Shown piece by piece: positions 16,109 to 36,565 of a stretch of DNA of 64,000 nucleotides; positions within the stretch are counted from its first letter, which is position 1; every line of letters begins with the position of its first letter. Made by a program: the position numbers and the translations under genes. A model generated the notes under the pieces. That model ran no database searches, was not told the DNA's origin, and saw nothing but the letters and a program-made list of their open reading frames with translations. This stretch comes from an uncultured Roseburia sp. (GTDB lineage: Bacteria > Bacillota > Clostridia > Lachnospirales > Lachnospiraceae): assembly GCA_947649645.1 (NCBI GenBank), contig CANSSP010000006.1:78121-142120 (forward strand), read 5' to 3'.

Positions 16109-16256
16109 GGATTATAAAAAAGTGCGGGGTCAGTAAAGATAGAGGATATGCAAAATCTTGTAGTTTATAAAATGATCAGAGCTGCGGGATTTTTTATTTG
16201 GCCAGACATATTTATCTTTAAAGAATATAGGTAAAAGTGTAGTATAAAGGAGGCCG

Positions 16257-16286: not shown

Positions 16287-16303
16287 AGAAGCAGAGGAGA
16301 AAG

Positions 16304-16340
16304 GGATACCGTCTGGCGCAGACAGGGTATCCTTTTTTTT
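16304..16340 (+). terminator. Intrinsic terminator upstream of the recombinase
   Basis: GGATACC and GGTATCC arms with an inner GTCTG/CAGAC pair form one long stem (16304-16332), followed by eight T (16333-16340). It can end transcription from rdrB, or act as an attenuator ahead of the recombinase gene, which starts 98 bases later. Confidence 0.8.
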
Positions 16341-16438
16341 GTGTGCAGAGGCGCAAAGAAGGGGATACCCGGCCTGTGCCCTGCGCAGCGGGCTGAGGAA
16401 GATTTCTTCTGCCGGATCTGGATGAAAGGGGAAAAAGG

Positions 16439-17278
16439 ATGAAAATTTGCGTCACAAAAAAGTACGCGGAAGAAAGGCTTACGGAGTACGAGAAGGAAAT
16501 GTTCATGCAGGAACTGTCCAGGAGAACCATTGCGAAATATATGGCCGATATCAGTCAGTGGCTTGGCGATATGGGCGATGTCATCACCAAGGAAAACGTG
16601 ATGCAGTACAAGACATTTCTGTGTGAGAGATTTAAAGCTGCCAGCGTAAATTCAAAGATCATATCCATCAACCGCTATCTCAAGTGGCTTGGGTATTGTG
16701 AATTGTGCGTTCAGACAAAGCGGGCGCAGACTGTGAATGTCATGGACAAAATCATTACAAAGGAAGATTATTATTCCATGCTCAGGGTTGCGGAGGAGGC
16801 GGGGAAGCAGAAAATCTTCTATATCATGAAAACAATTGCAGGGACCGGAATCCGTATCGGCGAGCTGAAATATGTGACGGTGGCGGCAGTAAAAAACGGA
16901 TACACGCAGATCTGGAATAAAGGGAAATACAGAAATATTTATTTTTCGGACCAGTTGTGCCGGGAGCTGACGGAATACTGCCGTGAGATGGCAATCGAGG
17001 AAGGCGTTATTTTTGAAGGGCGGTATAAAGGCAGGGCGATTACGTCCGCAAGCGTGTGGAAAAGTCTGAAAAATATAGCAAAGCAGGCCGAAATTCCGGT
17101 AGAGACGGTATATCCGCATTCGCTTCGTCATTTATTTGCAAAAAGCTATATGGAAAAAATAGGTGATATTACGGAGCTGGCAGATCTTTTGGGACACAGC
17201 AGACTGGAGACAACCTGGATTTACACGAAAACGACGCTGTCGGAGAAGAGAAAGAGGCTCAATATGCTGGATCTCTGA
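16439..17278 (+). CDS. Tyrosine site-specific recombinase (likely invertase of the adjacent switch)
   Basis: A 279-residue tyrosine recombinase with a SAM-like N-terminal core-binding domain (about 15-90) and a C-terminal catalytic domain. The active site is complete: Arg139 (TGIRIGEL), a Lys near 161-163, His227-x-x-Arg230 (HSLRHLF), His253 (LGHSRLETT) and the nucleophile Tyr262. Its stop codon directly abuts the left inverted repeat of a 109-bp segment, so its likely job is to invert that segment, as in other clostridial promoter switches. It lacks the long N-terminus of phage integrases, and there is no phage or conjugation gene nearby. AAAAAGG precedes the ATG. Confidence 0.9.
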   Translation: MKICVTKKYAEERLTEYEKEMFMQELSRRTIAKYMADISQWLGDMGDVITKENVMQYKTFLCERFKAASVNSKIISINRYLKWLGYCELCVQTKRAQTVNVMDKIITKEDYYSMLRVAEEAGKQKIFYIMKTIAGTGIRIGELKYVTVAAVKNGYTQIWNKGKYRNIYFSDQLCRELTEYCREMAIEEGVIFEGRYKGRAITSASVWKSLKNIAKQAEIPVETVYPHSLRHLFAKSYMEKIGDITELADLLGHSRLETTWIYTKTTLSEKRKRLNMLDL

Positions 17279-17305
17279 GTTGATATAATACGACATTATA
17301 TCAAA
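17279..17305 (+). repeat. Left inverted repeat of the promoter switch (IRL)
   Basis: A 27-bp sequence beginning one base after the recombinase stop codon. Its reverse complement matches 17415-17441 at 26 of 27 positions. The core (17281-17303) is itself nearly palindromic, as expected for a recombinase target. It contains the -10 box used by the minus-strand promoter. Confidence 0.9.
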
Positions 17306-17313
17306 ATTGTCAA
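17285..17313 (-). promoter_or_regulatory. Promoter carried by the invertible segment, now facing left
   Basis: On the minus strand TTGACA (17313-17308) is separated by exactly 17 bases from TATTAT (17290-17285). The -35 lies inside the invertible segment and the -10 lies inside IRL. In this orientation it fires into the 3' end of the recombinase gene on the antisense strand. After inversion the same -35 would sit 17 bases before the TATTAT of the right repeat (17430-17435) and read into accDA. Confidence 0.75.
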
Positions 17314-17414
17314 GAGTAGTATGGAGGAAACAGTTTTTTTTTCGCGTATGCCGGGACATTTTAAAGTGTCATTGCGTTGCAGAAAAGGGACTGGGACGGG
17401 AAGAGGGAAAATTA
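17306..17414. other. 109-bp invertible segment (predicted OFF for the downstream operon)
   Basis: The stretch between the two 27-bp inverted repeats. It encodes no plausible protein. In the present orientation the -35 position for the right repeat's TATTAT is GAAAAT (17407-17412), a poor match, whereas flipping puts TTGACA there. Hence the operon from accDA onwards is predicted off in this sequence and on in the flipped form. Confidence 0.75.
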
Positions 17415-17441
17415 TTTGATATAATGTCGTATTATGTCAAC
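17415..17441 (+). repeat. Right inverted repeat of the promoter switch (IRR)
   Basis: Reverse complement of 17279-17305 with one mismatch. It carries TATTAT at 17430-17435. It ends 51 bases before the accDA start codon, a sensible 5' leader length. Confidence 0.9.
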
Positions 17442-17492
17442 AGATGTAGTGCCGGGACAACATCGAGAAAAGGACGCAGAAGGGAAAGAACG

Positions 17493-19112
17493 ATGAGATC
17501 GGAATACAGAGAGTGCGGCAGATGTAAGGCAAAAGTGCCGGGAAATATATTGGATCAGAATCTTTCGGTCTGCCCAGAGTGTGGCAATTATATGCGTTTT
17601 CACGCAAAGAAAAGAATAAAGTCCATTGCGGACAGCGGTACGTTTAAAGAGTGGGAGAACAGGGAACCGATTTCCAACCCGCTGAATGATGCATATTATC
17701 AGAAAGCATTTGAAGGTGCGAAGATCAGACTCAATTTAAATGACGCTATCGTTGACGGCGAGATAGAGATGGATGGAATACGGGTGGCCATAGGGATTAT
17801 GGATACCAGGTTTATGATGGCCAGCATGGGGCATATCGTAGGAGAACGCATTACGAGACTTTTTGAAACTGCAACGAGGCGAAAGCTGCCGGTTATTGTT
17901 TTTTGCTGCTCCGGCGGAGCCAGGATGCAGGAAGGAATGATCTCCCTGATGCAGATGGAGAAAACAGCGGCGGCTGTAAAACGTCATGGCGATGCGGGAG
18001 GATTGTATATTTCGGTGCTGACAAATCCGACAATGGGAGGAGTGACGGCGAGCTTTGCGACGCTGGCGGATATTATCCTTGCGGAAAAAGGCGCGATGAT
18101 CGGTTTTGCAGGCGCCAGGGTAATCGAGCAGAATACGGGGGTGAAACTTCCGGAGGGTTTTCAGACTGCCGAATTTCAGCGGGAACATGGTTTTGTCGAT
18201 GCGATTGTGACAAGGGAGAATACAAAGGCATGTCTGTCATATCTGTTAAGGATGCATGCCGGAAATAAAAAGAGAGCCGGGAAAATACGGGAGACAAAAG
18301 CGCAGTATCGCAGAGGGGAAGCGGGGAGGAAATCGGCCTGGGAGAAAGTAATGATTGCACGCTCTTTGGGCAGGCCGACAAGTATGGATTATATCGGAAA
18401 GCTCTTCGACGGTTTTTTCGAATTGTGCGGCGACCGGCTCGGAGGAGACGATCACGCAGTTGTCGCCGGGCTGGCAGAATTTCATGCCTGTCCCGTGACG
18501 GTGATCGGACATCAGAAAGGAAAGGGTTCCATGGAGGATGCGATCTATCGCAACTGGGGAATGCCTTTGCCGCAGGGATACCGGAAAGTGTTCCGCTTGA
18601 TGAAACAGGCGGAGAAGTTCTGCCGTCCGGTGATCTGTTTTGTGGACACGACGGGAGCGGCGTGCGGGAAAGAAGCGGAGGAAAACGGGCAGGGACCGGC
18701 GATTGCAAGCCTTTTACAGGAAATGTGTTTTTTAAAAACGCCGGTACTTTCCATTGTGATCGGGGAGGGCGGAAGCGGAGGGGCCCTTGCGCTGGGAATC
18801 GGAAACGAAGTGTGGATGCTGGAAAACGCGGTGTATTCGATCCTGACGCCGGAAAGCTATGCGAGTATTCTGTGGAGGGACAATTCAAAGGCGCCCGAGG
18901 CCGCGCAGCAGATGAAGCTGGAGGCGGATGATCTGTATGCGTTAGGGATTATAGACAGGGTCATCAGGGAAGACGAGCCGGTAACCGTGGAAAACATGGA
19001 CTGCGTCTGCGCGAGGCTCAATGCGGATATTGCGGATTTCTTATACCGGTATCAGAGGAAAAGGCCGGGAGACATTGCAAAAGAGAGATACCGGAGATTC
19101 CGAAAGTTTTAG
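17493..19112 (+). CDS. Fused acetyl-CoA carboxylase carboxyltransferase, beta plus alpha subunits (AccD-AccA)
   Basis: Transfers CO2 from carboxybiotin to acetyl-CoA, giving malonyl-CoA for chain extension. The N-terminal half is AccD: a four-Cys zinc ribbon (CGRC near residue 9 and CPEC near 28), [10 protein letters not shown] and a crotonase-like fold. The C-terminal half is Acc[26 protein letters not shown] and [12 protein letters not shown]. In most bacteria these are two genes, so a single chain of 539 residues is unusual. Biotin carboxylase and BCCP are absent here and must come from elsewhere in the genome. The ATG at 17493 follows AGAAGGGAAAG; the open frame runs on upstream through the switch but without a good start. 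Confidence 0.93.
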
Positions 19113-19204: not shown

Positions 19205-19489
19205 ATGGAGCATTTAGAGGCTGAAGTATTGCAGATGATTATTGATAAGTTAGGACTGGATGATATCAATCCAGAGGAAGTCGATTATGACGCGCCTATT
19301 TTTGCATCGTACGCAGATGAGGACGAGGGGCTGGGCCTGGATTCCGTAGATGCACTGGAACTTGTTGTAGGACTCAAGGAAAAATTTGATGTCAAAATGA
19401 ACGATGAAGATATGGCTGTCTTCAGAAGCGTGTCGTCGATTGCGGATTACATCCGGGAGGTAAAGGGCACGGATTGCACGAACGGCTGA
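19205..19489 (+). CDS. Acyl carrier protein
   Basis: A 94-residue acidic carrier protein. Ser47 in GLGLDSVDALELV is the site for the 4'-phosphopantetheine arm, and the flanking helices match the family. The N-terminal part is somewhat longer than AcpP (insertion of ASYADEDEG before the Ser motif), a feature of pathway-specific carriers. It should hold the growing chain for the ketosynthase, reductases and dehydratase of this operon, and be activated by the phosphopantetheinyl transferase at 37608. The AGGAGG site precedes the ATG. Confidence 0.95.
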   Translation: MEHLEAEVLQMIIDKLGLDDINPEEVDYDAPIFASYADEDEGLGLDSVDALELVVGLKEKFDVKMNDEDMAVFRSVSSIADYIREVKGTDCTNG

Positions 19490-20985: not shown

Positions 20986-21004
20986 AAAAATCATGAGGAT
21001 CAGT

Positions 21005-22255
21005 ATGAAAAAGATTGCGGTAATCGGAAATGGTCCGACAGGACAGATTCTGGCACTTCTGCTGAAGGATTTCTGCAAATGTGTCAGGGTTGTGGATCGC
21101 ACAGATGAAAAAAATTGCGTTCCGTTTTATGCGAATGACATCGAGAGAGGGATCCTGAAGCAGTTTTGCGACGTCGCGGGCATTTCCCTGCAGACGTGTG
21201 AATGCGGGATGCGAAAAATACATATCGTGCCAGGGGACGGAAAACCGTTTTGCTGTGATTCTTCCATGGATTCTTTCCGGAGGGGGCTGGAAGAACGTTT
21301 TCCGGAACAGAAAGAAGCGATAGGGAGGCTGTTTGCGGATATAGAGGATGTCGGAGAAGAATGGGCCACACTGATACGGAATCATTTTGACGCGTCGCGC
21401 GGTTCTATGAAAAAATCTGCGGCATATGCGAATATGACGCTTGCCAGGTATCTGGAGCGGGCGGGGATTTCAGGGCCGGATGTCAAAGAGATTCTGTTTA
21501 CGGTACTGCCGGTTGGCGATGTGACTTTTTCTGTTTTTGCCGGATATTTTTACACACAGTTTTTTGACATTCATATTCTTTGCCAGGATCTGTGGAAAGA
21601 GATTGCCGGGAAAGCGGCCGGGCTGGAAACGGTTGTCACGGCGGGGCATCTGGAAAACATCGTCATAGAGAAGGAGACAGAAGGACAGGCAGAAGAAGGA
21701 ATCCTTAAAAACATGGACGGAGTCATTGATCTGAGGTGCAGCCGGCTGACCGGGCGGCCGGCGGAAAATACCAGAAAGAGGATCTGGGCAGGCACATTTT
21801 CGACATGTCAGCTGGATGAAAGCAGGATTTATCATCTGGCGATGTGCGACGGCGGTTTTCTGCGTCTCTGGAAAAATCTGTATCTGCCCTGGAGGAAAGA
21901 AGATCAGTGGCAGTTTGAAGCGCTGATGGAAGAAAGCAGCCGTATGGATGACAAAAAGGTGTCTGATCTTGTAAAAAGGCAGGTCCGGGACTGCCTTGGT
22001 GCAGATATCCATGTAAAATCGGTCTGTGGTCCCGATTATTTTGCGGCACATTATGATACGCCGTATGGATATATGTGGGCGTTTAATCCGGGACAGTCAA
22101 GGATGGACCCGTCTGATCTTTATAAAAAGCAGAAGATGCCCTGTATCAGAATGGGGTACTGGGGGTTCGCCTGGTTTTCGGCGGCATTCTGTCTGTACCA
22201 TATTCTTCTGACACAGACGGAATGGGGAGAGCAATACATACTCAAAGAGCGATAA
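21005..22255 (+). CDS. FAD/NAD(P)-binding oxidoreductase-like protein, divergent
   Basis: A 416-residue protein opening with the dinucleotide-binding motif KKIAVIGNGPTGQILALLL. The rest lacks the usual C-terminal FAD motif and matches no family I know well; the general shape recalls flavin-dependent desaturases or monooxygenases. It may oxidise an acyl-ACP intermediate of the pathway, or be a structural relative without catalysis. The ATG at 21005 has GAGGA six bases upstream. It lies between the ketosynthase and the thioesterase, 10 bases from the next gene. Confidence 0.6.
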   Translation: MKKIAVIGNGPTGQILALLLKDFCKCVRVVDRTDEKNCVPFYANDIERGILKQFCDVAGISLQTCECGMRKIHIVPGDGKPFCCDSSMDSFRRGLEERFPEQKEAIGRLFADIEDVGEEWATLIRNHFDASRGSMKKSAAYANMTLARYLERAGISGPDVKEILFTVLPVGDVTFSVFAGYFYTQFFDIHILCQDLWKEIAGKAAGLETVVTAGHLENIVIEKETEGQAEEGILKNMDGVIDLRCSRLTGRPAENTRKRIWAGTFSTCQLDESRIYHLAMCDGGFLRLWKNLYLPWRKEDQWQFEALMEESSRMDDKKVSDLVKRQVRDCLGADIHVKSVCGPDYFAAHYDTPYGYMWAFNPGQSRMDPSDLYKKQKMPCIRMGYWGFAWFSAAFCLYHILLTQTEWGEQYILKER

Positions 22256-22265: not shown

Positions 22266-22691
22266 ATGGAATGGATAAAGTACGATTATAGATTTCGAGG
22301 AAGATTTCGTGACACAGACGCGTATGGAATGGTTCATCACAGTAATTATTTCTGCTATTTCGAAGAGGCAAGATATGAATTTTCTGACCGGGTGCTGAGA
22401 CTGTATGAAAATCAGATTATGGAGAAGTTAAAATTTCCGGTGATTTCAGCGGAATGTATCTATAAAAATGCGCTTTACTATGATCTGGAAGAGTATCTGG
22501 TGAGACTGAAGTTCCGGATTCTGGAGGCGGCCAGAGTGGAGTTTGTTTATGAGATTCGCGGAGAAGGCACAAAGAAAATCTATGCAAAAGGCAGAACGGT
22601 CCATGCGATTATAAATGAGGAGAACAGGCTTTGCCTCACGCTGCCGCAGTGTCTTCGGAGACTGACAGAAGGAATGGGTGACCATGTGTAA
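22266..22691 (+). CDS. Acyl-CoA/acyl-ACP thioesterase, 4HBT hot-dog family
   Basis: A 141-residue single hot-dog domain with the family motif RFRDTDAYGMVHHSNYFCYFEEARYEF, where Asp18 is in the place of the catalytic Asp. It should release a chain from carrier protein or CoA by hydrolysis, or act as a dehydratase/cyclase-like accessory. It overlaps the next gene by a few bases. Confidence 0.85.
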   Translation: MEWIKYDYRFRGRFRDTDAYGMVHHSNYFCYFEEARYEFSDRVLRLYENQIMEKLKFPVISAECIYKNALYYDLEEYLVRLKFRILEAARVEFVYEIRGEGTKKIYAKGRTVHAIINEENRLCLTLPQCLRRLTEGMGDHV

Positions 22692-26088: not shown

Positions 26089-26517
26089 ATGGATAAACGT
26101 ATTATTTATGATACATTGCCGCACCGATACCCGATGCTGTTTGTGGATGATATTTACGAAACAGAGTTCGGACGGTACGTGCGCGGGGTGAAAAATGTAA
26201 GCTGTAATGAACCGTGGGTGACGGGACATTTTCCGGACAGTCCGGTATTTCCGGGAGTTCTGATCATAGAAACCATGGCGCAGATCGGTGGTTTTCTGTT
26301 TTACAGCAGGGAACGGGAGGCATCGTTAAAAGCGTACCTTTCCAGAGTAGACGAGGTAAAGTTTCTTCAGAAGGTGTTCCCGGGAGATCAGATAATCGTG
26401 GAGGCGGTGCTGGTTGAAAAGTTTTCACGGTATGTAAAGGCAAAATGTACGGCGGGCGTAAACGGGAAAACGGTGGCAAAGGCTGTCATTACCTATTTTT
26501 TTGACGACGATATTTAA
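26089..26517 (+). CDS. 3-hydroxyacyl-ACP dehydratase, FabZ-like
   Basis: Removes water from 3-hydroxyacyl-ACP to give a trans-2-enoyl chain. The hot-dog motif LPHRYPMLFVD carries the catalytic His12, and FPGVLIIETMAQIGG carries the catalytic Glu61. Length 142 matches FabZ. There is no enoyl reductase in the operon, so double bonds made here might be kept, giving an unsaturated or polyene chain (inference). Confidence 0.92.
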   Translation: MDKRIIYDTLPHRYPMLFVDDIYETEFGRYVRGVKNVSCNEPWVTGHFPDSPVFPGVLIIETMAQIGGFLFYSREREASLKAYLSRVDEVKFLQKVFPGDQIIVEAVLVEKFSRYVKAKCTAGVNGKTVAKAVITYFFDDDI

Positions 26518-26529
26518 GGAAAGAATGGT

Positions 26530-27588
26530 ATGCATATGAAAGAAATCCAGATTATAGGAATCGGTATGATAAACAGGACCGGAAACACGATAGATGACGT
26601 GTGGAATTGTCTGACAAGCGGGACAACTGTGGAAAATACGACGGGAAAGGCGGAATATGTCTCTGTACTTCCGCTGAGAAGGCAGAGGAGAATGAACCGG
26701 TATTCGGATATGGCCGTATACGTTTCATACAAAGCGCTGGATGACGCTGATATCGCAGTGGACAGCCTGGATCCGTATCGGATCGGCACGATTTTTTCCA
26801 CCGGGTACGGGCCGATGGAATCCAATCTGTCTTTCGCGGGGATGGTATTGGACGGGGATCCGGATCTGTGCAGCCCTACGGTATTTGCCAATACCGTATC
26901 CAATGCGTGTATCGGACATGTCTGTATGAATTTAGGCTGCAAGGGCGTCAGCACGATTGTAATGGGAAGCAACAGTGTCGGATATGCGCAGATGCTGCTG
27001 GATAAAGATGACGCCGATTATATTCTTTCCGGCTCCGTTGAGGAATACAATGAAGCACTGTATCAATGTCTGAAACACAATCCATATTCGGCGGATATCG
27101 ACATCGCGGAGGCGGCAGTCGGTTTTCTGCTGACGAAGGAAGAAAAGAAAGATGCATATTGCCGGCTGATTGACTTTATGGAATGTGATCTGGGGGCTTA
27201 TCCGCTCATCAACAGGGCGGAAGCGTCTGACATAAAAGCGGTGGAAACAGCCCTGGGACATTTTCTGGACAAATGTGATTTTCCGGTCGACGCTGTGTTT
27301 TCTGCCGGCAATAATTCCTGGTTTGATAAGTACGAATCCGGGATGCTCCGGCGTGTGCTGGGCAAAGAAGTCATTTATGTCGACGGGTTAAAAAAATATG
27401 TGGGAGAGACGTTGGGATCATCGTTGTCGGTATCGATTGCGGTTGCGGCTGTGTGCCTGAAGAAACAGACGATACCGGAAAGTCTTGCCGGGATAAAGAC
27501 GGAAGGCGCGGCTGTGAGAACGATTCTGGTGACGGGATATGACGTGACGGGAAATTATGTGGCATATCTGCTGTCCGGCCGGGAATAG
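26530..27588 (+). CDS. Ketosynthase-like protein without active-site residues (chain-length-factor-like)
   Basis: A 352-residue thiolase-fold protein. Its [19 protein letters not shown] lines up with the active-site segment of the operon's KS (TMSACAAGTTAAG), placing Asn148 where the nucleophilic Cys should be. The two catalytic His are also missing (SAGNNSW for [16 protein letters not shown] for IGHCLAAAG). It therefore cannot condense by itself. By analogy with type II polyketide synthases it would pair with the KS at 19783 and set chain length. It is short because one loop region is reduced. Confidence 0.82.
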
Positions 27589-27596
27589 AGGAGGAA

Positions 27597-27680
27597 GATT
27601 GAAAATTGAAAATTTTCAATCCCAGGTTTGTGTCTGTGCGGCATCCACAAACTTGATATGCGCAAAAAGCCGCGCAGAAA
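27597..27680 (+). repeat. Three consecutive hairpins before the first FabG-like gene
   Basis: Hairpin 1: GATTGAAAATT (27597-27607) with AATTTTCAATC (27611-27621). Hairpin 2: GTTTGTG (about 27627) with CACAAAC (about 27646). Hairpin 3: TGCGC with GCGCA around an AAAAAGCC loop (about 27659-27676). The layout, and the A-rich loop beside GCC/GGC, resemble the set at 19642. This could be a repeat family or an mRNA-processing site. Confidence 0.6.
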
Positions 27681-27691
27681 TGGGGTTAAAT

Positions 27692-28444
27692 ATGGAAGAT
27701 TCTGGTTTCAGGGATAAAAAGATCATTGTGACAGGAGGCTGTGCGGGCATCGGCAGGAGTATCACTTTAAGGCTCTTAAAGGCGGGCGCCAATGTGGCCG
27801 CGACCTACCATTCCTCAGCGCAGGGGGCGTCGGAGCTGGAAGCGGAGGCGAGAGCGTATGAAGGGGTTTTGCACACCTGCCGGATGAATGTCTGTGATGC
27901 GGATGAAGTGCGTATAAAAATGGATGAAATGATCGCAGGTTTTGGAGATACCGTAGACGGCCTGGTGAACAATGCAGGTATTACAAGGGACAGGATGTTT
28001 TTTATGATGCAGGAGGAGGACTGGAACAGCGTTCTTGACACCAATCTCAACGGTACATATCACGTGATCCGAAGGGTGCTTCTGCCGATGCTTCAGGAAA
28101 AAAAAGGCTCTGTTGTAAACATCAGTTCCGTGAGCGGACTGACGGGAGTGGCGGGACAGGCAAATTATTGTGCATCCAAGGCGGCGATGATCTCTCTGAC
28201 AAAAACGCTTTCCAAAGAGTTTGCCGGTAAAAATATCCGGTTCAATGCCGTGGCCCCGGGGTATATCAACACGAAGATGATACGCCGGATGCCTGCGAAG
28301 GCGCTGGAGCAGGTCGTGAAAAAAATCCCCATGGGACGTGTCGGAGAACCGGAGGAAATCGCGGAGGTCGTTCTGTTTCTGCTCAGCGATGCTTCCGGTT
28401 ATATCACGGGACAGACGATTGTGGCCGACGGCGGTCTGACCTGA
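27692..28444 (+). CDS. 3-oxoacyl-ACP reductase, FabG-like SDR
   Basis: Reduces 3-oxoacyl-ACP with NADPH. It has the cofactor loop [11 protein letters not shown], the NNAG motif ([12 protein letters not shown]) and the catalytic Ser and YCASK (Tyr-x-x-x-Lys). The end [14 protein letters not shown] is typical of FabG. The ATG at 27692 gives a 250-residue protein; in-frame ATGs upstream lie in the hairpin region. Confidence 0.92.
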
Positions 28445-28475
28445 TTTTGCCACAGAGCAGAAAAAGAGGCTGATT

Positions 28476-29198
28476 ATGGAGGAGAAAAAGACGGTTATCG
28501 TTACAGGCGCCAATGGCGGTATCGGCAGAGTGGTTGTCGATAAATTGCGGCGTGACGGGTATGAATGCATCGCGGTTGATAAAGAGGAGCAGGTATCCGC
28601 ACTGGAGGGAGACGGCACAGAGGTGATCTGTGGGGATCTCACCTCCGACGACATCTTTGAGCGGCTTGAGGTGGTGCTGGGGCGCAAACGCCGGATTTAT
28701 GGCGTTGTTTTCGCGTCAGGCATTATGCTTCCCGGAATGGTGACGGAGTCGGGGCAGGAAGACTGGGAGAGGACACTGGATGTCAATCTTACGTCTGTAT
28801 TTCGATTTACAAAGCTGCTGCTGCCGTATCTGATGCAGAATAAGCCGAGCCATGTGATTGCGATTGCGTCGCATCTGGGCGTGGTGGGTTCTTACGGCCT
28901 GACGGCGTACAGTGTGAGCAAGGCCGCCCTGATCGAATTTGTAAAATGTGTGGCGCTGGATTATGGAGACGCCGGGGTGATGGCCAATTGTATCAGCCCT
29001 GGATTTATAAAAACAAAAATGCTGGATCGGGCGGTGGGCCGGTTTGCGGGCAATAAAAAGTGGATGTTTGCAACCGGGGGAATGCCAAAACAGCATATTG
29101 ATGTGGAGGATGTGGCAAATCTGATTTCTTTTCTGCTGACACAGAACAGTATGAACGGAGAAAACGTTGTGATGGACGCAGGCTACAGTGTCAGGTAG
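28476..29198 (+). CDS. Second FabG-like short-chain reductase
   Basis: A 240-residue SDR with TGANGGIGRVV at the cofactor site, a Ser in IASHLGVVG and the catalytic YSVSK. It lacks the NNAG motif (FASGIM instead), so it is more divergent than the reductase before it. It may reduce a different chain length or a tailoring ketone of the product. It follows the first FabG-like gene by 31 bases. Confidence 0.88.
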   Translation: MEEKKTVIVTGANGGIGRVVVDKLRRDGYECIAVDKEEQVSALEGDGTEVICGDLTSDDIFERLEVVLGRKRRIYGVVFASGIMLPGMVTESGQEDWERTLDVNLTSVFRFTKLLLPYLMQNKPSHVIAIASHLGVVGSYGLTAYSVSKAALIEFVKCVALDYGDAGVMANCISPGFIKTKMLDRAVGRFAGNKKWMFATGGMPKQHIDVEDVANLISFLLTQNSMNGENVVMDAGYSVR

Positions 29199-29237
29199 CG
29201 TATGCCTTTACAGGAAGTTGCGGCGTGGAGGATTACA

Positions 29238-30587
29238 ATGAAAAAAAGAGACGGGGAAAAAGTATGGAATGCTTTTAAGCAGATGAAGGATTATCTGGAT
29301 AAAAGCATCCGGATTATCGGGAAAGTGGATTCCGATAATTATTTTACGGATATAAACGGAAACAGGATGTATGACGGCGTTTCTACCTTGCTCAATACCA
29401 ATATCGGGCATCAGAACGCGGAACTGATTGAGGTGATAAAGGAACAGCTCGAACTTCTGGATAACGCGACTTTATTTACCTGTACGGGCGGAGTTGCAAT
29501 CCGGTGTTCGGAAAAACTGTGTTCACTGAGTGACGGGCATTATTTTTCCACATTTTTTACAAACAGTGGTTCGGAAGCCTGCGATACGGCGATCAAAATT
29601 GTTCTGAAATACTGGAAGAACAAAGGAGAGGACAGAAATATCATCGTATCTTTAAAGGGCGCTTATCATGGATCTGGTATCGGGGCGATGATGCTGGCGC
29701 ACGGTGGATATCACATGGAAGACTATTCTCTGCAGTATGATCACATGCACCAGGTTACAGTGCCGGATCCGCTGGAAAAACCGACAGGGATGGAGGAGGA
29801 GGCGTGGATTGATTTCTGCGTCGACGAATTTATCAGTTATTGCGACGAAAACACCGGAAATGTGGCCGCGTTTTTTTTCGAACCGGTTCAGCTCTCAAAC
29901 GCCGTAAACGTTCTCCCCGGGAGTTATGTGCAGAAAATGTGTGATGTCTGCCGTCAGCGCGGCATATTGATTGTTGTAGATGAGGTTGCCACGGGGTTCG
30001 GGCGGACAGGGGACTGGTTTGCCTCGCAGTATTATGGTGTGTGGGGGGATCTGATGATGCTGGCCAAGGGAATTACTTCCGGGTATATCCCCATGGGAGC
30101 GGTGATGGTGACAAAAGAGATTTACTGTCAGTTTTACGGTAAGACTGCTGAGGGCAGGCAGTTAGAACATGGATATACGACAGGCGGTCATCCTGTAGCC
30201 TGCGCCGCGGCTATAAAGAATATGGAGCTGCTGGCAAAGAACGGCTGTCTGGAAAATGCGCGCGCGTGTGGCCTTTATCTGCTCGCCCGGCTGAAGGAAA
30301 GTATCGGACAATCGGATTTTGTCACGGCCGTCCGTGGAAAAGGGCTGATGATCGCTGTCGTTTTTGAAGATATTGTGATAAAATCAATGGAAGACTGGGG
30401 GATTGCAGAAATACTGACCAGCTTTCTGATGAGAAAAGGCGTTCTGCTGTATCCGGACGATCGGAATATCCTGATTATCGCGCCTTGTCTGAATGTCACG
30501 CGTGAGGAGTGCGACAGAATTGCAGACGCGGCGGGGACTGCGGTTGCCAGGCTGGAGTTTCTTCTCGGAAAAGCGCAGAGCAGATAA
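29238..30587 (+). CDS. Class III PLP-dependent aminotransferase
   Basis: A 449-residue fold-type I enzyme that should place an amino group on an aldehyde or ketone of the acyl product. The PLP Lys277 is in LAKGITSGYIPMG, Asp249 in VVDEVATGFGRTG holds the pyridine nitrogen, and NSGSEACDTAIKI binds the phosphate. The GGAGG at 29226-29230 puts the start at ATG 29238. An aminotransferase in a fatty-acid-like pathway suggests an amine-bearing product, and the BtrH-like enzymes could then form an amide with it (inference). Confidence 0.9.
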   Translation: MKKRDGEKVWNAFKQMKDYLDKSIRIIGKVDSDNYFTDINGNRMYDGVSTLLNTNIGHQNAELIEVIKEQLELLDNATLFTCTGGVAIRCSEKLCSLSDGHYFSTFFTNSGSEACDTAIKIVLKYWKNKGEDRNIIVSLKGAYHGSGIGAMMLAHGGYHMEDYSLQYDHMHQVTVPDPLEKPTGMEEEAWIDFCVDEFISYCDENTGNVAAFFFEPVQLSNAVNVLPGSYVQKMCDVCRQRGILIVVDEVATGFGRTGDWFASQYYGVWGDLMMLAKGITSGYIPMGAVMVTKEIYCQFYGKTAEGRQLEHGYTTGGHPVACAAAIKNMELLAKNGCLENARACGLYLLARLKESIGQSDFVTAVRGKGLMIAVVFEDIVIKSMEDWGIAEILTSFLMRKGVLLYPDDRNILIIAPCLNVTREECDRIADAAGTAVARLEFLLGKAQSR

Positions 30588-30597: not shown

Positions 30598-32010
30598 ATG
30601 AGAAAAGAGACAGGAAAGAAGTATGATGTAATCATTGTGGGAGGCGGAATTACAGGGCTATTGAGCGCGGCGATTCTCTCCGGAGCGGGAAGACGGGTAC
30701 TGGTTGTGGAACGTACCGGTGAGTTTGGCGGTATGTTGAAAATGATAAAATACAAAGGGGAGGAGTACTATTTCGGGGCGCATCATATTGCGGGAACGGA
30801 CGCGGACAGTGTGACGGGCGGCGTATGGAAAGCGCTTGGGATGGACGTGCGGGAGGATTTTGAAGAGGTGACGCACATGAGGCTTCTGACCGCCGGTAAA
30901 AGCCTTATGATTCCTTTAAAGCTCGGAGAACTTGAAACGTATATAAAAGAGCGTTATCCCGGCGAGACAGGAACAGAAGATTTTTTTTCGCGCTTAAGAC
31001 GATACCAGACCTTTTTTCGCGAGGGCGATCAGAAAGGGCTTCTTAAAATGTTTCTGGAGCATTCGCAGACGACGTATTATGAGCTGTTAAGGAGTTATTT
31101 TAAGCAGGATGAAGCAGTCAGGATTCTGGCGATGCTGGGGCCGGGCTACGGCGGTATCGGCATACAGGGGCCTGCTTTTAACAATCTTAGCCTTCTGCTC
31201 TCCTATAGTCTGGGATCCGGGCGTTTTAAGGAAGGCAATACGGGGGCGGTGAAACGCCTTATCGCGCTGGCCAGGCAGCATGGCTGTGTTTTTCTCAGTC
31301 ACACCGACTGCGTTGATATTAGGGTGCGGGACGGCAGAATACGGGGAATTGTATGTAAAACGCCGGATGGAACGGAAGAATATGAAGGAGAAAATCTGTT
31401 ATTCGCGTCATATCCGTTTGCGGTCCTTAAGCCATATCTCAGCGGGACGAGGCTGGAGAAAAAACTGGAAGGTTTTCACCCGGGACCGTCGGTGATCCGG
31501 GTCTGCGGACGGCTTGCCCGGATTCCGGATTCTTTTGCCGCAGATACGGTGTATATGGGCGGTTATGGGGCGGAGGAACTGGATAAAAATATTTTTCTGG
31601 AAGATCGTCTCACAAAGCTTCCTGTCTGTATGATCTGCGTCTACAGGGAAGCCGGTACCCCCCGGTTTCTGCTTACGTTCCAGGTGCAGGCGGACAAAAA
31701 AGTCCGCATTGCACAGGATAAACTATTGCAGTTGATCAAAAATGAGCTGCCGGAACTGGCGGAGCAGATCACAGACTGCTTTGTTTTGTATGATGATGTG
31801 TACCGGTCTGTGACAAATACTGCGTGGGGATCGGTTTTCGGGTGGCAGAGGACGCCGTATGTCTATCTGAATGCAAACGTATATACACCGTGCATGCCGG
31901 GAATAAAGGGATTGTATATAGCGGGAAACTGGTCGACGGATTATGGTGTCTATGGGGCCTTAAGAACGGCCCGAAAAGCGTGTGAAGCGATGATGAAGAA
32001 AAAAAGCTGA
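30598..32010 (+). CDS. Phytoene-desaturase-like (CrtI-type) FAD oxidoreductase
   Basis: A 470-residue flavoprotein. The FAD motif DVIIVGGGITGLLSAAIL lies near residue 10, followed by GEFGGMLKMI, and the C-terminal FAD contact is GLYIAGNWSTDYGVYGALRTARKA. CrtI-type enzymes add or shift double bonds in long hydrophobic chains. Here the likely substrate is the acyl chain. AAGGGAG precedes ATG 30598. A related gene lies at 35004. Confidence 0.8.
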   Translation: MRKETGKKYDVIIVGGGITGLLSAAILSGAGRRVLVVERTGEFGGMLKMIKYKGEEYYFGAHHIAGTDADSVTGGVWKALGMDVREDFEEVTHMRLLTAGKSLMIPLKLGELETYIKERYPGETGTEDFFSRLRRYQTFFREGDQKGLLKMFLEHSQTTYYELLRSYFKQDEAVRILAMLGPGYGGIGIQGPAFNNLSLLLSYSLGSGRFKEGNTGAVKRLIALARQHGCVFLSHTDCVDIRVRDGRIRGIVCKTPDGTEEYEGENLLFASYPFAVLKPYLSGTRLEKKLEGFHPGPSVIRVCGRLARIPDSFAADTVYMGGYGAEELDKNIFLEDRLTKLPVCMICVYREAGTPRFLLTFQVQADKKVRIAQDKLLQLIKNELPELAEQITDCFVLYDDVYRSVTNTAWGSVFGWQRTPYVYLNANVYTPCMPGIKGLYIAGNWSTDYGVYGALRTARKACEAMMKKKS

Positions 32011-32023
32011 GATGGGAGAAAAA

Positions 32024-32719
32024 ATGATTCGGGTTAAAAATGTGGTGAAGACGTATGCGGACGGAGAAGGAAAGGTTTATGCGTTAAACGATGTGAGCCT
32101 GGAGGTGGAGGAAAAGGATTTTATGGTGATTCTGGGACCATCCGGTTCTGGAAAATCGACGCTGATCAATATTATGTCGGCCCTGGACCGCTGTGACCTG
32201 GGCAGGGTGCTGTATGACGATCTGGATATCACACAGTTAAATGAAAAGAGGCTGACTGCGTTCAGGAGGGAAAAGGTCGGATTTATATTTCAGTCGTACT
32301 ATCTGCTGCCGGATTTAAATATTGAAAATAATATCCGCATGGGGGCCAGTCTGGTACATAATGACGATTATGGTGAGATCATTGAAATGCTCAATCTTAA
32401 GGACTTTTTAAAGAGGATGCCGTATCAGTTATCCGGCGGCCAGCAGCAGAGGGTTTCGATCGCGAGGGCGCTGGCGAAAAAACCAAAGGTTCTTTTCTGC
32501 GATGAGCCGACAGGGGCACTGGACGAAGAGCACGGCAAACAGGTGCTCGCCCTTTTACAGAAATATCAGGAAAATAATACCGTCAGCATGATTGTTGTCA
32601 CACACAACCAGGGAATCGCGGCGATGGCGAACAAAATCGTCAGGGTAAACAGTGGAAAGATCGTGGAGGTTCAGGAAAACGATCACGTGGTTCCTGCCGC
32701 AGAAGTGAGGTGGGCCTGA
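32024..32719 (+). CDS. ABC transporter ATP-binding protein, MacB/LolD-like
   Basis: A 231-residue ATPase with Walker A GPSGSGKST, Q-loop FIFQSYYLLPDLN, signature LSGGQQQRVSIARAL and Walker B VLFCDEPTGALD. This is the type that works with FtsX-like permeases, one of which follows with a TGATG overlap. GGGAG lies five bases before ATG 32024. Placed inside the biosynthetic operon, it probably exports the product or protects the cell from it. Confidence 0.93.
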   Translation: MIRVKNVVKTYADGEGKVYALNDVSLEVEEKDFMVILGPSGSGKSTLINIMSALDRCDLGRVLYDDLDITQLNEKRLTAFRREKVGFIFQSYYLLPDLNIENNIRMGASLVHNDDYGEIIEMLNLKDFLKRMPYQLSGGQQQRVSIARALAKKPKVLFCDEPTGALDEEHGKQVLALLQKYQENNTVSMIVVTHNQGIAAMANKIVRVNSGKIVEVQENDHVVPAAEVRWA

Positions 32720-34992
32720 TGAGGGGAATGTTCTTAAGCCTGGTAAAGCGCAATAAACGAAATATCGGTGGTATATTCGTTATCGTGTTTCTGACCGTTG
32801 CGCTTGGCGCCTGCTTTCTGGAATCCAATCAGCATATGGAAGAAGGCCTCGGGCTTCTGGAGGAATGCAATCCGCAGGATTTTACATTTTTTCCCGATGT
32901 GAAGAAGGATGAGCTGATGGAGGCGGAAGGGGATTACCAGAAGGCGGCCGATCAGAAGGCGGAAAAACTGGCGGAAACGTACCAGTTTACATGGGAAAAG
33001 CGCGAGTATGTCGTGCTCTGGGACAGGGAAAAAACGATCAGAATGTATCCTGAGGACCGGAAGATCGATCGGTATCAGCTGGTCGAGGGAAAGTATCCCA
33101 AAGACGCCGAGGTTATGATCGATTACAATTATGCGATGGAAAACGGGCAGAGGGTGGGGGATGTCTTTCCGATCGGGAAAGATATTTATACCATATCCGC
33201 CATCGCGGTGCTGCCGGATCAGATTTCTCCCGTTGTGGACAACACGGGGAAGATGTATGACGAAAAAACACAGTGTATCGTGGTTGTGAAAGAGGATGCG
33301 TTTGAGCAGTATACAAAGTCAAAGACGGTGAATGTCACGTATGCAGGCCTTTTCCCGCAGGACGCGGAGAGAGACATACAGAAAATGAAGCAGGACGAGA
33401 ATTTTCATCTGTTCCTGGAGAGCACAGAAAACCCGCAGATTCTGTCGGCCGTAAATTCGCAGAAAACGATGAACCAGATTATTATGGGATTTTCCATGGG
33501 CATACTGGGCTCTGTTACGGTCCTGCTGCTTCTGATTACCATCAGTGGACAGATCAGGGAAGAGTATAAAAACCTCGGTGTGCTCAAGGCGCTGGGATAT
33601 ACCAGTTTTGAAGTGTCGAGGAAGTATCTGTTCTATTTTTTTATTGTCGGCATTCCGGCAGTGGCAGGGTATGCTGCCGGACACCGGCTTGCAGATCTCT
33701 TTTATGAACTGGTATTCGGAACGTTTTCTGTCCCGTATGTCCGCAGGGGAATTGTGCCGGAGAATCTGCTGGTCCTGGCAGTTATTCCGACGCTTATATT
33801 TACGGCGACTGCATTTTTGTGGGCGATGATAAAAGTAAGAAGACCGGCTCTTGTGATGATATATAATGAAACAAGTGCCGCGGCAAACAGGATCGTCGTC
33901 TGGCTTAATAAAAAAATACAGTTTTCGGATTACCTGAAAGGAGTCAGGACTACGCTGCTTTTTTCCAAAACTGCGGTTCTGGCGTTTGTCTTATTCGGCG
34001 GGTTTGCGCTGGGAGTCCAGATTCAGTTTGCATACACCACGTATCATATGACGGCAGGTATCAAAGATCTGGTGCTGAGTGAATATCACTATGAGAACGA
34101 TGTCCGGTTCATTGAAACGCAGGATGACGAGACAGCGTATCAGGACAGTCTGAAATATCTGTGCGAGCCGGTCCGTTTAAAGACAGAAGCGGAGGATGTG
34201 TTTTATAATCTCAATCTCTGCGTGATTGACGATAAAAATACGCGTATGCTTCATCTGAATGATACGGAAGGAGTCGAGATAGAGATCGGGCGGCTGGACG
34301 GGGTTGTTATCAACCGGTGGATGCATATCAGGTATGGTCTGCAGAAAGGAGACGCAGTCTCGATCGTATTAAAGGATAAGGAGTATCAGACGAAGATCGG
34401 CGCAGTCTCGCAGAGCGTATATGGGAGCAATATTTATGTGGGAAAAGCGCTGGCGGTGAATCAGTTTGAACTGGAGGCAGACGCCTATAACGGAATCTAT
34501 ACGGATAACGATATTGTTTTTGACGAGGATCTTTATCTGAGCGTGACTTCCAGAAAAGAAATGGGAGAGACGATTGAGCGGTCGACCGGTATTTATGTGA
34601 TTTTATCTGTGATGCTTTTTATCTGCGGACTTGTGGTCGGTTTTATAACGCTGTCCCTGTCGCTGGCCGGGGTGGTAAACGGAAACCGCAGATATATTGC
34701 GCTTATGAAGATGTCCGGATATACGTTAAAGGAGTGTAATCTGGCCGTGATCGACGGATACAGAATAGTGGCTGTGGCCGGTTTTGTTATTTCCGTTCCG
34801 TATACGATCGTGCTGTGTACGGTCATGTTCCGCATTATTTCTGCAAATTCGGATATCGCTTATCCTGTCAGTATCAGTCCGGTTTCCATTGGATGCTGTC
34901 TGCTGCTTACCGTCGGGATTGTGGAGCTGATTTTATGGTATTTTAAGAGGAAACTGCAAAAGATATCATTCCGCGAAATAATGGAAGGGTAA
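32719..34992 (+). CDS. ABC transporter permease, FtsX-like (two FtsX units)
   Basis: A 757-residue membrane protein with an N-terminal membrane anchor, a large extracytoplasmic part, one FtsX unit (about residues 255-390) and another at the C-terminus (about 620-750). The EYKNLGVLKALGYTSFEVSRKYL and RYIALMKMSGYTLKECNL (positions near 275 and 655) coupling helices contact the ATPase. MacB-type machines move substrates outward by mechanotransmission. ATG 32719 overlaps the ATPase stop; a GTG at 32710 is less likely. Confidence 0.9.
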   Translation: MRGMFLSLVKRNKRNIGGIFVIVFLTVALGACFLESNQHMEEGLGLLEECNPQDFTFFPDVKKDELMEAEGDYQKAADQKAEKLAETYQFTWEKREYVVLWDREKTIRMYPEDRKIDRYQLVEGKYPKDAEVMIDYNYAMENGQRVGDVFPIGKDIYTISAIAVLPDQISPVVDNTGKMYDEKTQCIVVVKEDAFEQYTKSKTVNVTYAGLFPQDAERDIQKMKQDENFHLFLESTENPQILSAVNSQKTMNQIIMGFSMGILGSVTVLLLLITISGQIREEYKNLGVLKALGYTSFEVSRKYLFYFFIVGIPAVAGYAAGHRLADLFYELVFGTFSVPYVRRGIVPENLLVLAVIPTLIFTATAFLWAMIKVRRPALVMIYNETSAAANRIVVWLNKKIQFSDYLKGVRTTLLFSKTAVLAFVLFGGFALGVQIQFAYTTYHMTAGIKDLVLSEYHYENDVRFIETQDDETAYQDSLKYLCEPVRLKTEAEDVFYNLNLCVIDDKNTRMLHLNDTEGVEIEIGRLDGVVINRWMHIRYGLQKGDAVSIVLKDKEYQTKIGAVSQSVYGSNIYVGKALAVNQFELEADAYNGIYTDNDIVFDEDLYLSVTSRKEMGETIERSTGIYVILSVMLFICGLVVGFITLSLSLAGVVNGNRRYIALMKMSGYTLKECNLAVIDGYRIVAVAGFVISVPYTIVLCTVMFRIISANSDIAYPVSISPVSIGCCLLLTVGIVELILWYFKRKLQKISFREIMEG

Positions 34993-35003
34993 AAGGTTTT
35001 GTT

Positions 35004-36536
35004 ATGACGATGAGAAAAAGAAAAGTCGGGATTGTGGGCGGCGGCATCGGCGGTATCTTTACGGGGGCGCTGTTATCGAACAGAGGGTATGATGTTGAAA
35101 TTTTTGATAAGAATCCGATTCCGGGGGGATACTGCCAGGCTTTCGGGCGGAAGGGATATCGCATTCACCCCGCTGTTCTGCGCATCGGGTCGAAAAGCTG
35201 CGCCGACATGGTGGACGGGTACTGTGAGCAGGCCGGTATCGGCCGTCTCAGGTGGACGCGCTACAGGGAATATTATCAGTTTGGCGATGACATCCGGATT
35301 GATCAGTGTACAGACCGGATGGATCTGGAGCTGATCCGGTATTTTCCGGAAGATGCAGAACAGATCAGGGCTTTTTTTGCGGAAATAACGGAGCTGTATC
35401 AGATTATGAATAAGGTATTTGCAGCTCATATGACATTCCGGGGGCTCTGCGCGTCGGAAATCAAAAAATATATTCCCAATATATCCAGAACGGCAAAGCA
35501 GTTTGTGGAACAATATTTTGACAACGTTCTGTTAAAAGAGATCATTCTTGCGATGCTGGAGCTGGACGAGGAAAGTGTGGCGCTTGCCATTCCGATGACT
35601 TATTTTGAAATCAAGGGGCAGGGGGAGTACTATGTTCCGGAGGGAGGCGCATACCGTATCATCTCAGAATGTGTGGAGCTGATTGAGAAGAACGGGGGCG
35701 TGATACATAAAAATACTGCCGTCACAAAGATCTGCACAGAGAATAACCGGGTTACCGGAATCGTGGCGGATGGGAGAGAATACGTCTTTGACGTGCTTGT
35801 CTCCGGCATTGATATCAACAAAACATACCGGAATCTGATCGGAGAAAAATTTGTTGAAAATAAAAAAATGCTGCATGATCTGCAGTGTAAATGGAAAATA
35901 TCGAAATCCTGCTTCAGCATCTGGCTTGGATTTGACCGCACGCTGGAGGAACTGGGTGTGGATTCCGGCTCCGTGATCTGCTATCCGGACAAGGAGAACA
36001 TCGGAAAAGTGCGGAAAATCATGCAGACACAAGGGGAAAGACTGCCGGACGGTTACTGGTATCAATGTTTTACCGCATTCAGCCGGGATGCGTCGTCCAC
36101 TCCGGCAGGAGGGGCACAGATGTGCATCGGCATATTGGTGCCTTATGATTTTGAAAATCACTGGTGGGCGGACGGGGTGTACGCAGAAGAAAAACAGCGG
36201 CTGGTGGGACATGTGCTGGCGGATGTAGAGAAGCGTTATCCCGCAATCCGGGGACATTATGTTTTTGTTGAGGCGGCGACGCCTGTCACCTATGAGCGGG
36301 AATGCGGAAATACAAAAGGAGCTTATTTAGGGTTTGAGAAATACCAGGATTATGTATACGACCGCTCCAGACATCAGAATAAAGGTATGTCGGAAGGGCT
36401 CTTTTTTGCAGGCCACTGGGTATCTGTGATTGGCGGAGTCAACGGTGTGATGCAGGAGTGTGTAAAGACCGGCAATCTGATTATGCAGGAGTATCCCCTG
36501 TGCGATCATATGCAGGAATATATTCTGTTCGAATGA
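35004..36536 (+). CDS. Phytoene-desaturase-like (CrtI-type) FAD oxidoreductase, second copy
   Basis: A 510-residue flavoprotein with RKVGIVGGGIGGIFTGALL near residue 4, FDKNPIPGGYCQAF and a C-terminal FAD contact (GLFFAGHWVSVIGGVNGVMQECVKTG, positions near 465-490). CrtI and carotenoid isomerase (CrtISO) relatives have this layout. With the enzyme at 30598 it could carry out successive desaturations or isomerisations of the acyl chain. It follows the exporter genes by 11 bases, so it belongs to the same operon. Confidence 0.82.
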   Translation: MTMRKRKVGIVGGGIGGIFTGALLSNRGYDVEIFDKNPIPGGYCQAFGRKGYRIHPAVLRIGSKSCADMVDGYCEQAGIGRLRWTRYREYYQFGDDIRIDQCTDRMDLELIRYFPEDAEQIRAFFAEITELYQIMNKVFAAHMTFRGLCASEIKKYIPNISRTAKQFVEQYFDNVLLKEIILAMLELDEESVALAIPMTYFEIKGQGEYYVPEGGAYRIISECVELIEKNGGVIHKNTAVTKICTENNRVTGIVADGREYVFDVLVSGIDINKTYRNLIGEKFVENKKMLHDLQCKWKISKSCFSIWLGFDRTLEELGVDSGSVICYPDKENIGKVRKIMQTQGERLPDGYWYQCFTAFSRDASSTPAGGAQMCIGILVPYDFENHWWADGVYAEEKQRLVGHVLADVEKRYPAIRGHYVFVEAATPVTYERECGNTKGAYLGFEKYQDYVYDRSRHQNKGMSEGLFFAGHWVSVIGGVNGVMQECVKTGNLIMQEYPLCDHMQEYILFE

Positions 36537-36565
36537 TTGCTGGCCAAAAAAGGAGATGAAGAACA

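What the first reader, a model, noticed from the sequence alone, without database searches (positions are those of the whole stretch)
17279..17441. Invertible promoter next to a tyrosine recombinase, controlling a biosynthetic operon
Two 27-bp inverted repeats (26 of 27 matching) flank 109 bp and directly abut the recombinase stop codon. A TTGACA in the segment lies exactly 17 bases from a TATTAT placed inside the left repeat, facing left. Inversion would put the same TTGACA 17 bases before the TATTAT of the right repeat and drive the operon from accDA. At present that -35 position reads GAAAAT. So the sequence shows both states of a switch by design, and this genome is in the OFF form. Promoter inversion by tyrosine recombinases is established in Clostridioides difficile and Bacteroides; its use on an acyl/polyketide-like operon would be new as far as I know.
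Basis: partly seen in the sequence, partly recalled or inferred. Interest (0 to 1): 0.95.

Follow-up and report, generated by a model that had tools for sequence, protein, structure and literature searches.

The report
Flippable promoter for a metabolite operon
In a close relative of the gut bacterium Roseburia, a 163-base stretch bounded by near-identical inverted repeats sits directly after a DNA-recombinase gene and points a promoter-like sequence away from a 20-gene fatty-acid/polyketide-like cluster; flipping it would likely switch the cluster on, and related segments next to related recombinases are found in opposite orientations.

Summary
Two 27-bp inverted repeats (26/27) flank 109 bp and start at the base after the recombinase stop codon. 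TTGACA lies 17 bp from TATTAT, facing left; after inversion it would sit 17 bp before the right repeat's TATTAT, whose end is 57 bp upstream of accDA. The genome is in the predicted OFF form. The site occurs only twice in this genome assembly.

No reversed copy of this locus was found, so inversion here is inferred. Family evidence is strong. Of 112 recombinase loci examined (window included), 73 have such repeats just after the stop codon; by promoter score 8 face ON, 38 OFF, 27 are unclear. Homologous segments with collinear flanks occur in opposite orientation in two independent sets of loci. A second species keeps the left repeat and -35 box identical and 26 of 27 bases of the right repeat while the interior drifts, and also carries part of the operon.

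Promoter inversion by Clostridia tyrosine recombinases is known. What differs is the cargo and the split promoter, whose -10 lies inside the recombination site. All seven loci scored as split are OFF. Best reading: a dedicated, mostly-OFF phase switch for a specialised-metabolite operon.

The parts
16439..17278 (+). tyrosine recombinase gene (279 aa), XerC/XerD/XerA-like
   Evidence: Pfam PF00589 E 2.9e-20; phmmer to XerC-like 4a8e E 9.9e-19; R139, K161/K163, H227, R230, H253, Y262 invariant in an alignment of 12 (window and 11 relatives; catalytic role recalled)
17279..17305 (+). left inverted repeat / predicted recombination core site; holds the -10 TATTAT of the leftward promoter
17306..17414 (.). 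predicted invertible segment (109 bp), predicted OFF orientation
17308..17313 (-). -35 box TTGACA, facing left as sequenced
   Evidence: the same hexamer in L034, L035, L146, L152 and L137, TTGACT in L007
17285..17290 (-). -10 box TATTAT inside the left repeat, 17 bp from the -35
17415..17441 (-). right inverted repeat / predicted recombination core site
17430..17435 (+). -10 box TATTAT in the right repeat, used in the predicted ON state
17493..19112 (+). accDA: fused acetyl-CoA carboxylase carboxyltransferase, first operon gene
   Evidence: PF03255 E 1.2e-101, PF01039 E 1.6e-29
19205..19489 (+). acyl carrier protein
   Evidence: PF00550
19768..20985 (+). ketosynthase, FabF-like
   Evidence: PF00109/PF02801; TIGR03150 E 7.6e-94, below its cut-off
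20993..22255 (+). possible FAD/NAD oxidoreductase (by reading its N-terminus), marker of the cluster
   Evidence: no Pfam or NCBIfam hit; 6 proteins found, the window's own included, in 5.8 billion
22266..22691 (+). hot-dog thioesterase
   Evidence: PF13279
22678..26083 (+). unknown 258 aa, BtrH-like acyltransferase, unknown 178 aa, second BtrH-like acyltransferase
   Evidence: PF14399/PF16169 in two of the four; DarH-like, below cut-off
26089..30587 (+). FabZ-like dehydratase, partial KS-like (CLF-like) protein, FabG-like, SDR, class-III aminotransferase
30598..38246 (+). FAD oxidoreductase, ABC ATPase, FtsX-type permease, CrtI-like oxidoreductase, radical SAM, phosphopantetheinyl-transferase-like (weak); operon end inferred

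Best explanation
This is a predicted recombinase-driven phase switch: the tyrosine recombinase encoded at 16439-17278 would invert the 109-bp segment between its two flanking sites and so likely turn a split promoter towards or away from the 20-gene fatty-acid/polyketide-like operon that starts with accDA. In the sequenced form the -35 box lies by the left site and, with that site's TATTAT, points back into the recombinase gene. Inversion (inferred) would carry the -35 to the right site, complete a TTGACA-17-TATTAT promoter and start transcription about 50 nt before accDA. Because the -10 lies in the outer half of the recombination site, recombinase bound there would also be expected to block the promoter. 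The excess of OFF calls in relatives suggests a switch that rests OFF and turns ON in a minority of cells. Shown directly: the anatomy, its conservation, and reversed homologous segments in the family. Inferred: inversion at this locus, promoter activity, regulation of the whole operon, the product.
For: (1) Exact anatomy, unique in the assembly. (2) In a second species (L034, recombinase 86% aa) the left repeat plus the -35 box are identical over 42 bp and the right repeat in 26 of 27 bases, while the segment as a whole is 80% identical. That genome also carries the operon's accDA end, ACP, KS and part of the 20993 gene at 82-83% nt. (3) 73 of 112 recombinase loci have repeats of 16 bp or more starting within 100 bp of the stop codon; in the first 73 loci it was 48, against 20 of 1460 shuffles. 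(4) Of 19 homologous segment pairs, 3 are reversed: L131/L188 and L121 against L148 and L157. The recombinase and the adjoining downstream flank are collinear at 77-81% while the segment matches in reverse at 76-80%. L131 and L121 had been called ON by promoter score and L188 OFF, without use of the alignments; L148 and L157 were unclear. (5) A -35 in the segment with a -10 in the repeat recurs in 7 loci whose recombinases are 38-100% identical, with TTGACA in six and TTGACT in one. (6) Weaker: contigs end within 500 bp of the recombinase 3' end in 16 of 140 cases against 3 of 134 at the 5' end, Fisher p 0.003, as mixed orientations would cause; in the part that needs no fetched contig length it is 7 of 87 against 3 of 79. 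L034 ends 2 bp past its own 25-bp repeat. (7) Between recombinase and accDA the only rightward promoter-like match is 9 of 12, and no + strand terminator was found there.
Against: No reversed copy of this locus or of any of the 7 split-promoter loci was seen; all 7 are OFF. A close paralogue (L117, 62%) keeps the left site and the TTGTCAA but has no detectable right repeat, so some copies may be locked. 31 of 112 loci have no such repeats and 27 of 73 no clear promoter direction. A second 11-of-12 promoter-like match crosses the right repeat facing left. Contig ends may reflect multi-copy repeats. In L034 the operon piece is on another contig, so linkage to the switch there is inferred. Read-through from the recombinase promoter could express accDA in OFF. 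Inside the cluster + strand promoter-like matches of 10 of 12 (34180, 35518) and 11 of 12 (37182) exist, near the shuffle average over 17700-36500 (26 found, 21.5 expected) but above it over 36400-46500 (18 found, 8.1 expected), so the late genes may have their own starts.
Confidence: 0.8

Rival explanations
1. The element is real but locked or decaying here: the clade once switched, and now the leftward promoter is fixed in OFF.
For: All 7 loci scored as split are OFF. L117 has no detectable right repeat, and L072 and L073 show a single recognisable site (by eye).
Against: Both sites, the central spacer and the -35 are conserved between two species while the interior changes. The recombinase is intact and conserved. 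OFF is also the commoner call across the whole family, 38 to 8 (binomial p 9e-6), so 7 of 7 OFF is not far from expectation.
Confidence: 0.1
2. The leftward promoter itself is the function: it makes antisense RNA against the recombinase as self-control, and inversion has little to do with the operon.
For: As sequenced the promoter points into the recombinase 3' end in all 7 split-promoter loci, and by eye a TTGTCAA- or GTCAA-like -35 also lies by the left site in L117, L138 and L139.
Against: It does not explain a second, matched site carrying a correctly placed -10 in front of a different gene. In the internal-promoter relatives eight such promoters face the cargo, and reversed homologues exist. 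It could be true in addition.
Confidence: 0.06
3. The two palindromes are operators or terminators that bind a regulator; the repeat arrangement is incidental.
For: The left repeat can fold as a hairpin.
Against: The repeats are in inverted register with an asymmetric central spacer, abut a recombinase gene, and differ between loci along with the recombinase; reversed homologues exist.
Confidence: 0.03

Closest known systems
Clostridia inverton group 139 with tyrosine recombinase group 35 (hCom2 study, PMC11892184; section 8 and passages read)
   Same: A group of 33 invertons, 32 from class Clostridia, significantly linked to nearby tyrosine recombinases; probably the same broad family (inferred, no sequences compared).
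   Different: The passages seen stress surface-related genes; 'polyketide' and 'natural product' have no occurrence in its main text. I saw no description of a -10 inside the repeat, but figures and supplements were not seen.
C. difficile cmr and pdcB switches (PMC8844915, PMC9286219; abstracts and passages read)
   Same: Promoter in a short invertible element flanked by imperfect repeats (19 bp for pdcB), OFF in the reference genome; cmr is also linked to a c-di-GMP riboswitch, which relatives L035 and L202 have downstream of the repeats.
   Different: cmr and flg are inverted by RecV, which acts on several sites; here the recombinase gene abuts the only site pair found. Cargo there is signalling genes. 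Where the -10 lies relative to the repeats is in figures that are not held.
PsrA and other hsdS invertases (search listing; psrA hit at 30% identity)
   Same: Distant tyrosine recombinase relatives that invert DNA.
   Different: They invert coding segments of restriction genes. In the tree a deep 9-row branch without the downstream repeat holds L086, which lies next to a type I specificity gene.
E. coli fimS with FimB/FimE (abstracts seen in a listing)
   Same: Invertible element with site-specific recombinases; FimE gives ON-to-OFF bias.
   Different: Fimbrial cargo and two recombinases; promoter wholly inside the element (recalled).

Membership tests
tyrosine recombinase family | Phage_integrase domain and catalytic R-K-H-R-H-Y set | tested here: met
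   PF00589 above cut-off; alignment to XerC-like 4a8e and XerA 5hxy; residues invariant in 12 aligned proteins
inverton (invertible promoter) | inverted repeats flanking a short intergenic segment | tested here: met
   26/27 bp, gap 109
inverton (invertible promoter) | promoter that faces the downstream gene in one orientation only | tested here: met
   score 13.8 flipped against 8.2 as is; by sequence only, activity not tested
inverton (invertible promoter) | both orientations observed | tested here: inconclusive
   not seen at this locus; seen between homologous loci of the family; no reads available
inverton (invertible promoter) | dependence on a named recombinase | not testable with these tools
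   needs deletion or in vitro assay
C. difficile-type switch with c-di-GMP riboswitch | c-di-GMP riboswitch between switch and gene | tested here: not met
   no such Rfam hit in window 16050-20000, though met in L035 and L202, 2 of 11 relatives scanned
type II fatty-acid/polyketide-like biosynthetic cluster | KS, KS-like partner, ACP, KR, DH and a phosphopantetheinyl transferase together | tested here: met
   the PPTase is weak and the KS-like partner partial

The most novel reading that the evidence does not exclude
A branch of Lachnospiraceae recombinases has turned its own recombination site into the -10 half of a promoter, and moves as a self-contained, mostly-OFF switch cassette placed in front of specialised-metabolite and antagonism genes (the window's polyketide-like operon, bacteriocin-like peptides with exporter in L137, lysozyme/amidase in L152, ABC and C39-exporter genes in L035), so that gut bacteria phase-vary chemical warfare, in some relatives gated further by a c-di-GMP riboswitch.
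Probability: 0.35. Interest if true: 0.8.

Novelty: new variant of a known kind. Interest (0 to 1): 0.62.

Why it matters
If true, a gut commensal makes a small molecule only in a flipped minority of cells, so cultured strains would look silent while a subpopulation produces it. That could explain some silent biosynthetic clusters and gives a direct handle: isolate or fix the ON orientation and look for the product. The split promoter ties recombination and transcription to the same DNA site, a testable form of self-control.

Tried and rejected
Reversed copies in viral contigs: recombinase, site pattern and recombinase alignment found none. Plasmid and phage records: 20 plasmid records below 60% identity, 3 phage records, one a partial 67% relative in MT835751.1 (L202). 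Sites acting in trans elsewhere in the assembly: none at up to 3 mismatches. A riboswitch or other Rfam RNA between switch and accDA: none; the single weak mir-3173 hit (E 0.21) was discarded as chance. A terminator inside the segment that would make this a read-through switch: not found by scan; folding of the segment is z -2.29 on the plus and -1.27 on the minus strand. Operon homologues with other regulation: the 20993 marker protein gave one other hit among 397 family genomes, a 40-residue stretch at E 2e-4 (G057, which holds part of the gene, was not among the hits, so presumably was not drawn), and two marginal hits among 391 class genomes. My worry that 7 of 7 OFF speaks against switching was weakened by the family-wide 38:8 OFF:ON ratio but stays as a rival. 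Two further reversed pairs of the first comparison (L076/L144, L017/L126) were dropped because parts of L076 and L017 are self-palindromic and the pairs missed the stricter cut-off; L188 also has a self-palindrome of 59 bp, far shorter than its 173-bp reversed match. A 60%-identity recombinase subfamily among metagenome proteins (best 120 of 196 listed) could not be read as DNA here; a search of 391 class genomes found, besides the window's genome, only a 40% member. PMC7016997 holds 'invertible promoter' only in a reference title. Jiang et al. 2019 is not held and is recalled only.

Full report
What is there. The site occurs at these two places only, in the window (expected 0.00 in shuffles) and in the roughly 91% complete assembly at up to three mismatches. 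The left repeat is a hairpin-forming near-palindrome of two 10-bp arms round a 5-bp asymmetric centre (ACGAC; GTCGT in the right repeat). That is the shape of a tyrosine-recombinase core site (general knowledge), in the inverted register that gives inversion. The promoter scan of 17000-17700 gave five matches against 1.3 expected. The only rightward match before accDA is 9 of 12.

The recombinase. The 279-aa ORF is a Phage_integrase-domain protein, nearest among solved structures to XerC-like 4a8e and XerA 5hxy, with the catalytic residues invariant in an alignment of the window protein and 11 relatives of 56-86% identity (their catalytic role is recalled).

The cargo. From 17493 to 38246, 20 genes on one strand with mostly small gaps encode a fused AccDA, ACP, FabF-like ketosynthase, a second partial ketosynthase, FabZ, FabG, another SDR, a thioesterase, two BtrH-type acyltransferases, a class-III aminotransferase, FAD/CrtI-like oxidoreductases, an ABC transporter, a radical SAM protein and a weak PPTase. 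Among NCBIfam models the AccA subfamily, one FabZ and one FabG model pass their cut-offs; the hits of the other genes scanned do not, so the product is not assignable; an amine-bearing polyketide-like lipid is a guess. The cluster looks rare: six relatives of the 20993-22255 protein, its own copy included, among 5.8 billion proteins at that search's sensitivity, and no convincing relative in the other 396 family genomes drawn. No promoter-like match lies in 19080-19820, which includes the 278-bp ACP-KS gap. Over 17700-36500 matches are near the shuffle average (26 against 21.5), with two 10-of-12 + strand matches at 34180 and 35518; one of 11 of 12 lies at 37182 in a stretch with more matches than shuffles (18 against 8.1). 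The late genes may thus have starts of their own. Where transcription ends is unknown; vWA, PP2C, kinase and DnaK-like genes (named by reading) follow on the same strand after a 189-bp gap.

A second species. L034 (uncultured Roseburia sp. MAG contig; a contig of the same length, L005, belongs to G057, same genus as the window) holds the recombinase at 86% identity, the left repeat and -35 box identical over 42 bp and 26 of 27 bases of the right repeat, while the segment as a whole is 80% identical. The contig stops 2 bp beyond its own 25-bp repeat. Another contig of G057 has the end of accDA, ACP, KS and part of the 20993 gene at 82-83% nucleotide identity, so switch and operon occur together in both species, though their linkage in the second is not assembled. 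Upstream of the recombinase only one more 87-bp stretch aligns, so the module probably sits in different surroundings.

Does this family invert? I examined 112 distinct recombinase loci, the window included, taken from the best matches plus further copies in genomes with many; not all matches were fetched, and related copies count separately. Eight had too little sequence after the gene, 31 had no repeats of 16 bp or more, and 73 had them starting within 100 bp of the stop codon. In the first 73 loci, 48 had them, against 20 of 1460 shuffles (base order shuffled within 50-base blocks). A simple -35/-10 score called 8 ON, 38 OFF and 27 unclear. Comparing all 73 segments gave 19 similar pairs at E 1e-4: 16 in the same orientation (one of them an 18-bp match) and 3 reversed, L131/L188 (two loci of one genome) and L121 against L148 and L157. 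In all three the recombinase and the adjoining downstream sequence align in the same direction at 77-81% (two shorter pieces further down at 70-72% in L131/L188), and the segment aligns in reverse at 76-80%, with the change at the repeats. The score had called L131 and L121 ON and L188 OFF without seeing the alignments; L148 and L157 were unclear. This is direct comparative evidence that such segments invert in nature. Contigs also end close to the recombinase 3' end more often than the 5' end (16 of 140 against 3 of 134 within 500 bp, p 0.003; 166 places, the second side known only for fetched contigs). In the part that needed no fetched contig length it is 7 of 87 against 3 of 79, so this is supporting evidence only, and repeats in several copies could do the same.

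The split promoter. Of the 73, 48 score a promoter inside the segment, 18 are weak, and in seven (window, L034, L035, L137, L007, L146, L152) the -35 is in the segment and the -10 in the repeat. The seven fall in one 15-row group of the tree that is only weakly supported (80/64), and the label needs four changes. All seven are OFF. Given the family's OFF excess this is not very surprising, but it means no ON example of this design has been seen. L202, not among the 112, also scores higher flipped (11.0 against 9.2), with a TTAACA -35. L117, a 62% relative, keeps the left half and has no detectable right repeat, which fits occasional locking.

Cargo of the near relatives. L137: class II bacteriocin-like peptide (E 6e-4, below the Pfam cut-off) and a C39-ABC exporter; L072 (no 16-bp repeats) and, as second gene, L152: amidase-lysozyme; L139: HNH-like, weak; L138's second gene: adenosine-deaminase-like. 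The first genes of L035, L152 and L138 and the L146 gene scanned have no Pfam hit. L035 has ABC genes (by reading) and, about 4 kb on, a C39-ABC exporter. L202, a partial 67% relative in an unannotated 'phage' record, precedes an ABC transporter, a nucleotidyltransferase-like and a weakly tRNA-synthetase-like gene. More distant relatives carry polysaccharide, choline-binding and other surface genes, a NusG-like and an Rrf2 regulator. I scanned 20 chosen proteins from 17 loci, so the lean towards antagonism genes near the window is a lead, not a count.

Known or new. Invertible promoters and tyrosine-recombinase switches are well known in Bacteroides and C. difficile, and PMC11892184 (section 8 and passages read) links a Clostridia inverton group to a tyrosine-recombinase group. 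The searches (listings seen; one search listed 20 of 1,630 and 20 of 33) showed no paper on an invertible promoter driving a polyketide or fatty-acid-type cluster. The library holds open papers only, and most listed papers were not opened. Photorhabdus phase variation that alters secondary metabolites through a fimbrial switch is recalled, not looked up. I therefore rate it a new variant of a known kind.

Verdict. The switch reading is well supported by anatomy, constraint and family behaviour; inversion and regulation at this locus remain to be shown.

Noticed in passing
L035 11079-11163 and L202 1153-1246: A c-di-GMP-I riboswitch (67.7 and 65.1 bits, gathering 35) lies just downstream of the repeats in two close relatives, 2 of 11 scanned, which would make a two-input gate of DNA orientation and c-di-GMP.
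   Followed up: partly
L117 (G247:C5), downstream of the recombinase stop: A 62% paralogue in what appears to be the same genome as L035 keeps the left site and the TTGTCAA but has no detectable right repeat: a possibly locked switch.
   Followed up: partly
L131 and L188 (G423:C34): Two paralogous recombinase-inverton units about 12 kb apart in one genome carry the segment in opposite orientations, L131 before an Rrf2-type regulator.
   Followed up: yes
L137 (G451:C6): Split-promoter repeats in front of double-glycine-leader bacteriocin-like peptides and a C39-ABC exporter.
   Followed up: partly
L086 11577-13070, also L023 and L024: Recombinases of a deep branch without the downstream repeat lie next to type I restriction specificity genes on the other strand (L086: Methylase_S E 4e-25; L023 and L024 by reading), as hsdS invertases do.
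   Followed up: partly
window 16296-16341: A strong hairpin followed by eight T (z -4.5; missed by the pattern scan) lies between the upstream gene and the recombinase; it is not aligned in L034, so it may be the upstream gene's terminator or an attenuator for the recombinase.
   Followed up: partly
L202 990-1040: The inner flank of the left site is an inverted copy of about 20 bp of the recombinase 3' end, extending the palindrome; it may be a trace of an aberrant exchange or an assembly artefact.
   Followed up: no
L072 and L073 downstream of the recombinase: By eye only one recombination-site-like palindrome remains before the cargo gene, as if the segment had been deleted.
   Followed up: no
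window 38436-44871: Same-strand vWA, PP2C-phosphatase, kinase and DnaK-like genes follow the biosynthetic operon after 189 bp; whether they share its transcript is unknown (names by reading the ORFs).
   Followed up: no
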